Source of the DNA: a virus
DNA length: 26,838 nucleotides
Strand: one strand, 5' to 3'
IMG/VR virus record: IMGVR_UViG_3300030406_003470
Span: 1 to 26,838 of that record
Part shown: positions 1 through 26,838 of the stretch, piece by piece
How positions within the stretch are numbered: position 1 is the stretch's first letter
How the letters are laid out: each line of letters opens with the position of its first letter
The notes under the pieces: generated by a model
Database searches by the model: none
Told to the model about the DNA's origin: nothing
What the model saw: the letters and a program-made list of their open reading frames with translations, nothing else
Position numbers and translations under genes: made by a program

Positions 1-2
1 TG

Positions 3-401
3 GCCCCATCTCACAAAGATGGCACTCACGGGTGGAATATCGGAGCCGCAGTTCAGGACTCACTGAGCGACAACCCAATCAGACTTTGGCCGACTCCAAC
101 AGTGAATGGCAACCACAATCGAAAAGGTTTAAGCAAGACAAGCGGGGACGGTCTATCAACAGCCGTAAAGAAGAAAGCGAAACAGTGGCCCACCCCAACA
201 AGTCGGGAGTACAAGGGCGCTCGAAGCAAGGAGTCGATGGAGAAGTCAGGGCGCAACCCAATGACCAACACACTGAGCGACTCAGTCGAAGCCGAGTCAG
301 GTTATCAAACCCCAGAAGGAAAGCTGAGTGGAAGCCTGAACCCGATGTGGGTCGAGTGGCTCATGGGATACCCAATCGGGTGGACAGACTCAAAGGATTA
401 G
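3..401 (+). CDS. Cytosine-C5 DNA methyltransferase, C-terminal part (5' end cut by window)
   Basis: The frame is open from the left edge to a TAG at 399-401, so the N-terminal catalytic part lies outside the window. The visible part has two 'WPTPT' segments (the second followed by SREYKGAR) and ends in LNPMWVEWLMGYPIGWTD, the pattern I recall from phage Dcm-type enzymes that methylate cytosine C5 with S-adenosylmethionine. In phages such enzymes usually protect DNA from host restriction. The stop comes before motif X (typically RVDRLKxLGNAVVPQ), which helps build the SAM pocket; that motif is present but in the -1 frame (next entry). So the gene is frameshifted, ends early, or makes two C-termini. 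Family is fairly certain; activity is not. Confidence 0.8.
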   Translation, partial: APSHKDGTHGWNIGAAVQDSLSDNPIRLWPTPTVNGNHNRKGLSKTSGDGLSTAVKKKAKQWPTPTSREYKGARSKESMEKSGRNPMTNTLSDSVEAESGYQTPEGKLSGSLNPMWVEWLMGYPIGWTDSKD

Positions 402-514
402 GCAACGCTGTGCTACCCCAGATCATACAGGAACTGGGCGAAGTGATACTGGATGTTGAGGCCGAGGCTTTGGTTGATAGTAGAAAATATACCTTCAATC
501 TGAAGGACGAGTAA
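326..514 (+). CDS. Methyltransferase motif X segment in the -1 frame
   Basis: In the frame one base back from the preceding entry the DNA reads EWKPEPDVGRVAHGIPNR and then VDRLKGLGNAVLPQIIQELG, ending at TAA 512-514. This matches the C-terminal motif X region of C5-methyltransferases. The frame is open upstream to the window edge, but its translation before about 326 is low-complexity and unlike the family. No ribosome-binding site or start codon suggests an independent gene here. Functionally it should be the real C-terminus of the enzyme, reached by a -1 frameshift or restored if an indel is present. I saw no canonical X-XXY-YYZ slippery heptamer in register. Confidence 0.6.
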   Translation, partial: EWKPEPDVGRVAHGIPNRVDRLKGLGNAVLPQIIQELGEVILDVEAEALVDSRKYTFNLKDE

Positions 515-570
515 AAACACTTAGGAGGGAAAGTTAAAGTAAATTCTAGATCGGCATAGACTGACTCTGG

Positions 571-749
571 TAGGGTCAAAGGGGTGGGTCAAAAAAACGG
601 AGTCGATTGACCCTACCTAGCTGAAAGCCCTACTGTGGCGCGGTTTAGTGTAGGGTCAGGTAGGGTCAGACTGACCCACCGTGACCCTTGACCCTACGGT
701 ATGCTAAGTTATTGATTTATAAGGGTGGGTCATAGGGTCAGTAGGGTCA
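571..749. repeat. Iteron-like array of GGGTCA / TGACCC
   Basis: Eleven copies of GGGTCA in either orientation lie within 179 bases: forward at 573, 586, 653, 663, 727, 735 and 744; reverse at 608, 672, 682 and 689. Most extend to TAGGGTCA or TGACCCTA. Spacing is irregular, with the copies at 653-694 and 727-749 nearly back to back. No coding frame explains the repeats. Arrays like this are typical of replication initiator sites, multi-site repressor regions, or terminase recognition sites; the terminase small-subunit gene begins about 380 bases to the right. Which role applies cannot be told from sequence. Confidence 0.75.
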
Positions 750-788
750 CTCTCTAAAGAGAGGTATATAGCTATATAAATATACCCT
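750..788. promoter_or_regulatory. AT-rich palindromes beside the repeat array
   Basis: Directly after the last GGGTCA copy are CTCTCT-AA-AGAGAG (750-763) and TATATAGCTATATA (765-778); the outer GGTATAT (763-769) also pairs with ATATACC (780-786). The AT-rich stretch continues to the next gene at 860 without a coding frame. Such a segment could be a DNA-unwinding element beside an iteron array, or a promoter/operator for 860-1765. I see no confident -35/-10 pair. Confidence 0.4.
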
Positions 789-24355: not shown

Positions 24356-24365
24356 GATATAGTGT

Positions 24366-25070
24366 GTGGCTGATGTCAAGGTTGCCTTTGATGGATGGAA
24401 TTCTTCCTCTCATGGATGGGGCGAAGGAACGTGGGGTAATGGCGAAGCAGTACCTGGAGCAACAGGCGCTGTTGGCACGGTCTCGGTTGCGGCAGATGCG
24501 AACGTCAGCGTTACAGGCGTTGCAGGGACAGGGACTCTTGGCTCGATTTCTGTATCCGCTGATGCGAGTGTTAGTGTATCTGGGGTATCAGGCACTGGTA
24601 CTCTTGGTTCAGTTACGGTCACAGGTGAAGCAAATGTTAGTCCCACGGGTGTTGCTGGTACGGGAACGCTTGGTTCAGTTACGGTCTCGGCTGACGCAAG
24701 CACTTCGGTCACTGGTGTGGAAGGCACAGGAACACTGGGATCGGTTTCGGTCACGGGTACAGCGACAGTCTCTGTCACAGGCGTGGCAGGAACAACAGGG
24801 CTTGGAAGCGTCACCGCGATCACAAGTAACACGATTGAGGTCCAAGCTCCGTCAGAAATGGTCGGAGGTATTGGATCGGTTACGTTTGAGGGAGATGCGA
24901 ATGTATTCCCAACAGGCGTGGAAGCAGCCTGTACAACGAGTGGCGTTAATGTTTGGGGGCTTATCGATGACAGCCAAACAGCGAATTGGGCAAGTATTGA
25001 TGACAGCCAAACGCCAGGTTGGTCAGAAATTAATGACAGCCAAACACCTAATTGGAAAGAGGTAGCCTGA
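24366..25070 (+). CDS. Repeat-rich fibre-like protein (22-aa and 11-aa repeats), 234 aa
   Basis: GTG start with ATAGGA upstream. After MADVKVAFDGWNSSSHGWGE, six tandem units of about 22 residues follow (consensus VSVTGVAGTGTLGSVTVSAD, about residues 35-165), then a less repetitive section and three 11-residue units (DDSQTANWASI, DDSQTPGWSEI, NDSQTPNWKEV) at the end. The beta-strand period suggests an elongated fibre or brush. The 66-nt DNA repeats keep other frames open too. Probably part of the tail or head surface; partner unknown. Confidence 0.8.
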   Translation: MADVKVAFDGWNSSSHGWGEGTWGNGEAVPGATGAVGTVSVAADANVSVTGVAGTGTLGSISVSADASVSVSGVSGTGTLGSVTVTGEANVSPTGVAGTGTLGSVTVSADASTSVTGVEGTGTLGSVSVTGTATVSVTGVAGTTGLGSVTAITSNTIEVQAPSEMVGGIGSVTFEGDANVFPTGVEAACTTSGVNVWGLIDDSQTANWASIDDSQTPGWSEINDSQTPNWKEVA

Positions 25071-25204: not shown

Positions 25205-26838
25205 ATGGCAACTTACGTTAATGATTTAAGATTAAAAGAGATCGCCACTGGCGATGAATCTGGAACTTGGGGAACAAGCACAAATACGAATTTGGAGCTA
25301 ATTGCTGAAAAATTTGGGACAGGAAGCGAGGCTCTTTCGGACGCTAGTACAGCAACCATTACGATGGCTGACGGTGCTAGTGATGCATTTCGCTCTTTGG
25401 CTCTTACTCTGACAGGATCTCTTTCCCAGGCTTGTACAGTTACCCTGGCTCCAAATACTCTTTCTAACGTATGGATAATTCAAAACTCTGCTGGTGATAC
25501 AGTCACATTAACCGCAGGAACAGGCGCAAATGTGGTCATACCAAACGGCGGTATCCGCATGGTGGCTACGGATGGTGCAGGATCAGGTGCAGCGGTTACA
25601 GATGTACTCGACGTATTAGGCGGTACAGGCAACGTAGGTCTCGGTAGCGGTGCTTTTGGTACAGGTCTGACAACAGGTACAGATAACGTGGCTATTGGTG
25701 AGAACGCTGGTGATGCGTTGACTACTGGGTCTGACAATACGTTTGTTGGTGACAATGCGGGTGGGGCGACAAGTACAGGAGGATCAAACACAGCTCTTGG
25801 TTCTGAAGCTGGAGCTTCAATGTCTACGGCAGACCACAATACTTTTTTGGGACAATCTGCTGGGTATAGTATTACTGGAGGTTCCAATACTATTGGGGGC
25901 TCAAATGCAGGTTACTATTTAACTACTGGAACAAACAATGTAGCTTTTGGAAAAGATGCCCTACAAGGGCCATCTACAGGATCGACTTGCTCAAGCAATG
26001 CCGCAATCGGATGGTCATCGCTCAAATCTGTAACGACAGGCGCAGAAAACGCCGCAGTCGGGGCAGAATCCCTAGAACAAGTGACCACGGGGAGTTACAA
26101 CAGTGTTTCTGGCTACAGAGCGGGAGACTCGATAACCACCGGAAGCTATAATGTGGCCATGGGCCGAAGAGCTTTAGATTCTGTAACAACAAGCTCTTAT
26201 AGCGTTGCAGTCGGAGCGAGTGCTTTAGAAAACAGTACAGCGGCGGGAGCAACAGCCATTGGACACGCAGCTTTGGCCGCGAATACTTCTGGCCTTTATC
26301 CAACGGCTCTCGGCTTTGAAGCATTAAAGGCAAATACTACGGGCGAAGGCAACACGGCCCTCGGATACGAAGCTGGTCACGACCTGACTACAGGAAGCAG
26401 CAGCGTTGCAATCGGGTTTCGCGCTCTTGATGGAAATAGTACAGGTAGCTCTAACATAGCAATCGGAAACAACGCTTTAGGGAGCGCGAATAATTTTAAT
26501 CACAACATGGGAATTGGACTCAGTGCGGGTCTTTCCATGGCAACTGGGACACAGAACATCTTCATCGGAAATTACGCAGGTGATGGAGCGACTGCTGGAA
26601 ATAACTCAGTCGCCATCGGATACGAAGCTCTTACTGGAGCATCTACTACGGGCGGCGAACACGTTGCGATTGGGGTAGGGGCATCTTCAGCCATAACCAC
26701 GGCTACTCAAACAGTGGTCATAGGAAAATCTGCGGGTGACGCAATAACTACATCAAGTTCTTGTACAATTGTTGGCGCACTTGCTGGAAGCTCTCACGCA
26801 ACTGGCGGGGGTGTAACTGCAATTGGTTTCGAGGCTGG
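25205..26838 (+). CDS. Tail fibre/spike with beta-roll repeats (3' end cut by window)
   Basis: ATG at 25205 with AAGG upstream; no stop before the right edge, so at least 544 codons. The N-terminus MATYVNDLRLKEIATGDESG followed by TWGTSTNTNLELIAEKFG is the tail-attachment type start common in phage fibres. After a beta-rich domain (about 50-145) come many units of the form 'TTGxxNVAIGxxALxx' (for example TTGSYNVAMGRRALDS, TTGSSSVAIGFRALDG). Such units are seen in left-handed beta-roll, YadA-head-like trimeric proteins. It should bind the host surface and set host range. The receptor-binding tip is probably beyond the window. Confidence 0.85.
   Translation, partial: MATYVNDLRLKEIATGDESGTWGTSTNTNLELIAEKFGTGSEALSDASTATITMADGASDAFRSLALTLTGSLSQACTVTLAPNTLSNVWIIQNSAGDTVTLTAGTGANVVIPNGGIRMVATDGAGSGAAVTDVLDVLGGTGNVGLGSGAFGTGLTTGTDNVAIGENAGDALTTGSDNTFVGDNAGGATSTGGSNTALGSEAGASMSTADHNTFLGQSAGYSITGGSNTIGGSNAGYYLTTGTNNVAFGKDALQGPSTGSTCSSNAAIGWSSLKSVTTGAENAAVGAESLEQVTTGSYNSVSGYRAGDSITTGSYNVAMGRRALDSVTTSSYSVAVGASALENSTAAGATAIGHAALAANTSGLYPTALGFEALKANTTGEGNTALGYEAGHDLTTGSSSVAIGFRALDGNSTGSSNIAIGNNALGSANNFNHNMGIGLSAGLSMATGTQNIFIGNYAGDGATAGNNSVAIGYEALTGASTTGGEHVAIGVGASSAITTATQTVVIGKSAGDAITTSSSCTIVGALAGSSHATGGGVTAIGFEA

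What the first reader, a model, noticed from the sequence alone, without database searches (positions are those of the whole stretch)
326..401. One DNA stretch reads as two different conserved methyltransferase C-terminal motifs in two frames
Frame 3 gives LNPMWVEWLMGYPIGWTD, a family-typical end, then a stop. The -1 frame over the same bases gives EPDVGRVAHGIPNRVDRLKG and continues LGNAVLPQIIQELG, the family's motif X. Both look conserved, so a random indel alone does not explain it. Options: programmed -1 frameshift giving two C-termini, an ancient frameshift that produced one motif from the other, or an assembly error near here.
Basis: partly seen in the sequence, partly recalled or inferred. 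Interest (0 to 1): 0.75.

Follow-up and report, generated by a model that had tools for sequence, protein, structure and literature searches.

The report
Two overlapping genes, one split methyltransferase
A phage DNA-methylating enzyme appears to be written twice on the same stretch of DNA: one reading frame encodes the chemical engine and the other encodes a shuffling set of parts that probably choose where DNA is methylated, and this arrangement recurs in phages and prophages across many bacterial phyla.

Summary
Window 1-514 is the 3' end of two overlapping genes on the + strand. Frame B (2-514) is a C5-cytosine methyltransferase. Frame A (3-401, +1 relative to B) is a nested ORF. [quoted passage not shown] In 83 non-redundant homologues A has 4 stops where B-synonymous shuffles predict about 360; the third frame matches expectation. 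B-synonymous divergence falls from 0.39 before A to 0.10-0.24 inside it and recovers to 0.29 after it. Between motifs VIII and IX, A is an array of 'WPTP' modules, shuffled among phages and conserved in A but not in B. When motif X moves into A's frame, B stops right after motif VIII. One MTase carries the same modules in its catalytic chain, between VIII and IX. Best reading: a split C5-methyltransferase, with catalytic chain B and target-recognition chain A. Frameshifting, indel and assembly error are not supported. The architecture resembles M.EcoHK31I. Its breadth and the modular nested chain seem undescribed in the literature I could search. Chain pairing and activity remain inferred.

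The parts
2..514 (+). Frame B: 3' end of the C5-cytosine methyltransferase gene (catalytic chain). Cut by the window start; motifs I-VIII lie upstream (L009:1091-2509 in the near-identical contig). TAA at 512-514.
   Evidence: PF00145 E=2.5e-46 and TIGR00675 E=1.7e-36 on the full-length L009 copy; phrog_363 on the window part
3..401 (+). Frame A (+1 relative to B): 3' end of the nested gene, proposed target-recognition chain. TAG at 399-401. In L009 it starts at ATG 1260 (739 bases upstream of window base 1), preceded by AAGGAG.
   Evidence: phrog_1008 and other PHROG hits; codon-shuffle, divergence and start-site tests
3..86 (+). Rest of A module 4 (TAMKGGEGV-APSHKDGTHGWNIGAAVQDSLSDNPIRL)
   Evidence: module cluster 6, 18 loci
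87..185 (+). A module 5, WPTPTVNGNHNRKGLSKTSGDGLSTAVKKKAKQ
   Evidence: module cluster 0, 78 loci, array positions 0-4
186..335 (+). A module 6, WPTPTSREYKGARSKESMEKSGRNPMTNTLSDSVEAESG plus linker YQTPEGKLSGS
   Evidence: module cluster 1, 66 loci
336..398 (+). Motif IX in frame A (LNPMWVEWLMGYPIGWTDSKD), proposed equivalent of M.HhaI LHPRECARVMGYPDSY
   Evidence: invariant columns in 78 A proteins; collinear but weak profile alignment of the related VEWMMG enzymes to M.HhaI 272-307
335..397 (+). Frame B reading of the same bases (PEPDVGRVAHGIPNRVDRLKG), conserved linker before motif X
398..421 (+). Motif X in frame B (LGNAVLPQ); its LG codons TTA-GGC contain A's TAG stop
422..514 (+). B-only C-terminal tail

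Best explanation
The stretch belongs to two genuine genes overlapping in the same direction. SHOWN: Frame B encodes a C5-cytosine methyltransferase chain with motifs I-VIII and X. Frame A (+1), nested in it, is a second protein-coding gene with its own start: either at B's start codon or 10-24 codons before motif IV, as in this phage. Between motifs VIII and IX the amino-acid sequence under selection is A's, as an array of exchangeable WPTP modules followed by motif IX; there B is only kept free of stops so that it can reach motif X. INFERRED: A is the target-recognition chain (tandem TRD-like modules plus motif IX) that assembles with catalytic chain B into one active enzyme, and the number of modules (six in this phage) sets how many target sequences it methylates. 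A's N-terminal part, overlapping IV-VIII, may be its docking surface on B.
For: (1) A is open: 3 stops vs 222.6 expected (IV-VIII) and 1 vs 137 (VIII-IX) in 83 loci, while the third frame matches expectation, 364 vs 352.5 and 608 vs 646.5. This holds for loci recruited by B's C-terminus. For 37 loci recruited only by B's catalytic N-terminus it is 0 vs 185.8, and 36 of 39 such loci have the nested layout. (2) Fraction of same-residue B codons that differ, in 35 independent pairs: 0.39 before A, 0.24/0.20/0.14/0.10 within, 0.29 after. (3) Start: in 60 class-2 loci, 55 ATGs vs 25.9 expected and 35 with a Shine-Dalgarno match vs 6.5 expected; in class 1, A's ATG typically lies 4 nt after B's. (4) Modules: in 19 of the 20 largest clusters A-frame identity exceeds B's (mean over all 20: 0.68 vs 0.38, C 0.38), with differences at A codon positions 1/2/3 of 0.26/0.22/0.53. 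Modules occur at any array position, and 6, 3 and 2 of them are present in relatives whose B chains are 91-93% identical. (5) In L182 and L228 A carries IX and X and B stops just after VIII; the same in L253, L257, L287, L290, L305. (6) In L263/L270 a single methyltransferase chain carries in frame, between VIII and IX, modules matching the A frame of 23 other loci (best E=7.7e-23). (7) A similarity in IV-VIII exceeds B-synonymous shuffles, 0.745 vs 0.141 BLOSUM per site; C 0.315 vs 0.00.
Against: No expression data. AlphaFold2 of A alone is poor (pLDDT 56, pTM 0.24, no significant PDB match), and in the L263 model the module region is unresolved (pLDDT 30-50). No profile recognises A as part of a methyltransferase. 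The motif IX match to M.HhaI is collinear but only 2.5 bits. Module clusters were built from A-frame similarity, which inflates A identity. Single-frame VEWMMG enzymes keep IX in B, so A need not always carry IX.
Confidence: 0.78

Rival explanations
1. Programmed frameshifting: ribosomes shift between A and B near motif IX (or B to A after motif VIII) and make a fused chain.
For: A and B are +1/-1 related. In split relatives such as L257 one +1 shift after VIII would give a canonical I-VIII, modules, IX, X chain.
Against: No slippery heptamers in window 1-401 and no excess in 83 homologues. A has its own ATG with Shine-Dalgarno enrichment and is open far upstream of any needed shift. In the window layout a single shift gives a chain lacking X. 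Non-canonical +1 stimulators were not tested.
Confidence: 0.07
2. A is a real overlapping gene with a job unrelated to target recognition, for example a regulator or anti-restriction protein overprinted on the methyltransferase.
For: No database family other than PHROG clusters, poor fold prediction, and a conserved N-terminal part over IV-VIII.
Against: Modules lie exactly where C5-methyltransferases carry their variable region. IX and X move between the frames. One enzyme carries the modules in its catalytic chain. B is truncated when A carries X.
Confidence: 0.12
3. A is an unexpressed shadow ORF kept open by codon bias or by B's conserved residues.
For: B's conserved motifs do constrain A. 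A comparable +1 depletion is seen in the control enzymes (54 vs 130), although inspection showed a nested ORF there too.
Against: Codon-usage-preserving shuffles, third-frame control, local drop in synonymous divergence, start-site enrichment and A-type codon periodicity in the modules.
Confidence: 0.02
4. Indel or assembly error near 326-401.
For: The window starts inside the gene, so it cannot show the full ORFs.
Against: A separately assembled contig is identical over the first 821 bases (4 differences in 2,572 bp), and relatives with diverged DNA keep both frames.
Confidence: 0.01

Closest known systems
M.EcoHK31I (two-polypeptide C5-methyltransferase, YGGCCR; PMC3404938 and references there)
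   Same: Large chain with motifs I-VIII and X, small chain with motif IX (PMC3404938). From memory, not verified here: the small chain's ORF lies within the large chain's gene in another frame.
   Different: PMC3404938 places the predicted TRD of M.EcoHK31I in the large chain. Here the region between VIII and IX is under selection in the small chain's frame, as an array of up to about seven exchangeable modules. Sequence homology to M.EcoHK31I was not tested.
M.AquI (split C5-methyltransferase)
   Same: Catalytic motifs I-VIII on one chain, motifs IX-X on the other (PMC3404938); like L182, L228, L253 and L257 here.
   Different: In M.AquI the variable region is divided between the chains. Here the chains overlap in different frames by 200 nt or more, and in the window X stays on the catalytic chain.
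Multispecific phage C5-methyltransferases (SPbeta, phi3T, rho11s type; from general knowledge)
   Same: Tandem exchangeable modules of about 30-50 residues between motifs VIII and IX.
   Different: Those are single polypeptides in one frame; here the module array sits on a second chain in the overlapping +1 frame.
PHROG families phrog_363 and phrog_1008
   Same: B matches phrog_363 (1.6e-78) and A matches phrog_1008 (3.4e-37).
   Different: Both are labelled 'DNA methyltransferase' as if separate families. They are the two frames of one locus.

Membership tests
C5-cytosine DNA methyltransferase (PF00145), chain B | Motifs I, IV (PCQ), VI (ENV), VIII and X in one chain | tested here: met
   L009 B and 38 relatives, PF00145 2.5e-46
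C5-cytosine DNA methyltransferase (PF00145), chain B | Recognisable TRD and motif IX in the same chain | tested here: not met
   PF00145 match ends at residue 197; between VIII and IX, B identity equals the third frame; IX lies in frame A
Two-polypeptide C5-methyltransferase of the M.EcoHK31I kind | Large chain has I-VIII and X, small chain has IX | tested here: met
   definition from PMC3404938
Two-polypeptide C5-methyltransferase of the M.EcoHK31I kind | Both chains needed for activity | not testable with these tools
   needs expression of A and B
Two-polypeptide C5-methyltransferase of the M.EcoHK31I kind | TRD in the large chain | tested here: not met
   the modules between VIII and IX are conserved in A's frame, not in B's
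Multispecific C5-methyltransferase | Tandem, exchangeable modules between VIII and IX | tested here: met
   897 modules; the largest clusters occur at several array positions; gain or loss between close relatives
Multispecific C5-methyltransferase | TRDs in the catalytic polypeptide | tested here: not met
   only L263/L270 have modules in the catalytic chain
Multispecific C5-methyltransferase | Methylates several different sequences | not testable with these tools
   needs methylome data
Programmed -1 frameshift gene | Conserved X XXY YYZ heptamer near the frame change | tested here: not met

The most novel reading that the evidence does not exclude
A large family of phage C5-methyltransferases, spread through phages and prophages of more than ten bacterial phyla, is encoded in two frames of the same DNA: the catalytic chain in one, and a recombining cassette array of target-recognition modules in the other. 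Cassettes must be exchanged while both frames are preserved, so phages diversify methylation specificity through an overprinted subunit gene.
Probability: 0.65. Interest if true: 0.85.

Novelty: new variant of a known kind. Interest (0 to 1): 0.72.

Why it matters
Long, ancient, conserved overlapping genes are rare in bacterial and phage genomes, and most claims rest on single genomes. Here the overlap recurs over hundreds of codons in over a hundred non-redundant loci, and the same functional motifs switch between frames in different lineages, which allows clean comparative tests. It would also explain why databases hold two 'DNA methyltransferase' families for one locus (phrog_363, phrog_1008), why some annotators record an 'internal gene' (Paenibacillus phage Diva g49, Escherichia phage K1G ORF30), and why phage methyltransferases may be inactive when only the annotated frame is cloned. 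If the modules are recognition cassettes, counting them should predict how many motifs a phage methylates.

Tried and rejected
Reading the VEWMMG enzymes as ordinary single-chain controls was wrong: they too contain a nested +1 module ORF that ends before IX, so they are a third arrangement, not a negative control. Only L263/L270 carry modules in the catalytic chain. AlphaFold2 of A alone gave an unusable model, and its Foldseek hits are meaningless. L205, L209 and L216 (bacterial copies with IV in frame with IX, or short A) look frame-scrambled and were not taken as functional fusions. L242's A found no phage match. Plasmid hits are few. Literature searches found no description of the nested phage arrangement. 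The primary M.EcoHK31I paper is not held.

Full report
WHAT IS IN THE WINDOW. Both readings described in the finding are present. Frame A (3-401) ends LNPMWVEWLMGYPIGWTDSKD-TAG; frame B (2-514) reads EPDVGRVAHGIPNRVDRLKGLGNAVLPQ over the same bases and runs on to TAA at 512-514. Each A codon starts one base after a B codon. The window is a linear virus record of 26,838 bases whose left end cuts the gene. A near-identical contig, IMGVR_UViG_3300030117_003756 (4 differences over 2,572 bp, none in the first 821 bases), contains the whole gene (L009). There B is a complete C5-cytosine methyltransferase (PF00145 2.5e-46, TIGR00675 1.7e-36). A is a nested ORF of 379 codons starting ATG at L009:1260 after TATTAAGGAGTTAG. 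No B-synonymous shuffle out of 5,000 kept A open.

A IS A REAL GENE. Tested by codon shuffling within B, which keeps the protein and the codon usage, A is almost free of stops in 83 non-redundant viral and phage loci: 3 vs 222.6 expected between motifs IV and VIII, and 1 vs 137 between VIII and IX. The third frame behaves as expected: 364 vs 352.5 and 608 vs 646.5. Loci recruited through A or through B's C-terminus give the same result. A third set recruited only with B's catalytic N-terminus, outside the TRD and motif IX, gives 0 vs 185.8 in 37 loci, and 36 of 39 have the nested layout. In 35 independent pairs the fraction of same-residue B codons that differ is 0.392 before A, 0.244, 0.202, 0.140 and 0.103 inside it, and 0.288 after A's stop. 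A's first ATG falls in two places: at B's own start (20 loci; usually 4 nt downstream, as in ATGAATGAG) or, in class 2, mostly 10-24 codons before motif IV. In class 2, 55 of 60 loci have such an ATG (25.9 expected) and 35 have a Shine-Dalgarno match before it (6.5 expected). In the IV-VIII region A's similarity between distant loci exceeds B-synonymous shuffles (0.745 vs 0.141 BLOSUM per site), about twice the excess of the third frame (0.315 vs 0.00).

WHICH FRAME DOES WHAT. Between motifs VIII and IX, A consists of modules of about 25-50 residues starting with W/L/F-P-T-P. I extracted 897 modules. The largest clusters occur in many loci and at several array positions: TVNGNHNRKGLSKTSGDGLATAVK in 78 loci, TSREYKGARS in 66, NTMDHLPQRS in 34. 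Relatives whose B chains are 91-93% identical carry six (L009), three (L011) and two (L012) modules. Within clusters A identity averages 0.68, B 0.38 and the third frame 0.38, with differences at A codon positions 1, 2, 3 of 0.26, 0.22, 0.53. So in this region selection on residues acts through A, and B looks like any unselected frame, except that it is never allowed a stop: 0 vs 333 expected under A-synonymous shuffles. Clustering on A-frame similarity inflates the A value, but it does not by itself create the codon-position pattern.

NATURAL EXPERIMENTS. In L182 (Bacillota) and L228 (Spirochaetia), motif X sits in A's frame after motif IX, and there B ends directly after motif VIII. Five further loci (L253, L257, L287, L290, L305) show the same split, with about 206-230 nt of overlap. 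This is what is expected if B crosses the module region only to reach X. In L263/L270 one chain carries I-VIII, then three modules, then IX and X; those modules match the A frame of 23 other loci (best E=7.7e-23). In another large group (VEWMMG enzymes) IX and X are both in B, and the nested A carries the N-terminal part and modules and ends near IX. I first took that group as single-chain controls and had to correct this. The constant element is therefore the +1-frame module protein; IX and X change sides. Motif IX was identified by its place between the modules and X and by a collinear but statistically weak profile alignment to M.HhaI 272-307.

MECHANISM. The variable region and motif IX form the DNA-recognising small domain of C5-methyltransferases, and naturally split or artificially split enzymes reassemble from fragments (M.EcoHK31I, M.AquI, M.SssI fragments; PMC3404938). 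The best-supported reading is that A is the target-recognition chain and B the catalytic chain of one enzyme, with as many recognition units as modules. The two-gene structure, A's own start, and A as the selected frame of the module region are shown at sequence level. Assembly of A with B, activity, and one target per module are inferred. A's part over IV-VIII may be a docking domain; that is a guess.

ALTERNATIVES. Programmed -1 frameshifting lacks slippery sites (none in window 1-401; 2 sites vs 4.8 expected within 120 nt upstream of IX in A's frame) and does not explain A's start or its long upstream opening. An assembly error is excluded by the second contig and by relatives. An unrelated function for A cannot be excluded, because A has no recognised fold, but it fits the natural experiments poorly.

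BREADTH AND NOVELTY. Of 73 non-redundant bacterial-genome loci, 62 show the full nested layout. They come from Bacillota, Pseudomonadota, Spirochaetota, Bacteroidota, Acidobacteriota, Planctomycetota, Verrucomicrobiota, Actinomycetota, Patescibacteria and other groups. Public annotation records parts of it as 'internal gene' or overlapping 'DNA methyltransferase' CDS. PHROGs lists both frames as 'DNA methyltransferase'. The closest described enzyme is M.EcoHK31I. I recall, but could not verify, that its small subunit is encoded within the large subunit's gene in another frame. I found no description of the phage family or of a cassette array in the overlapping frame, in a library limited to openly licensed papers. 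I file it as a new variant of a known kind.

Noticed in passing
window 566-750: Intergenic stretch after the methyltransferase gene with about ten copies of GTAGGGTCA/TGACCCTAC in both orientations, including an 18-nt inverted repeat at 652-688; iteron-like or operator-like.
   Followed up: partly
window 24364-25070: Two long same-strand ORFs in different frames over a repetitive glycine/threonine/valine-rich protein; probably an effect of in-frame repeats, not tested.
   Followed up: no
window 25205-26836: Long ORF with repeats of the 'TTGSDNVAIGENAG' type, likely a tail-fibre or adhesin-like protein, running off the window end.
   Followed up: no
L263:472-1590 and L270:472-1590: A methyltransferase with recognition modules in the same chain as the catalytic motifs, found in two separate contigs; a natural fusion of the two frames.
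   Followed up: partly
L205, L209, L216: Bacterial copies in which frames A and B are scrambled by indels; they look like decayed prophage genes.
   Followed up: partly
L249-L328 (VEWMMG loci): A second large group in which the nested +1 ORF carries modules but not motif IX, which is in the catalytic chain.
   Followed up: partly
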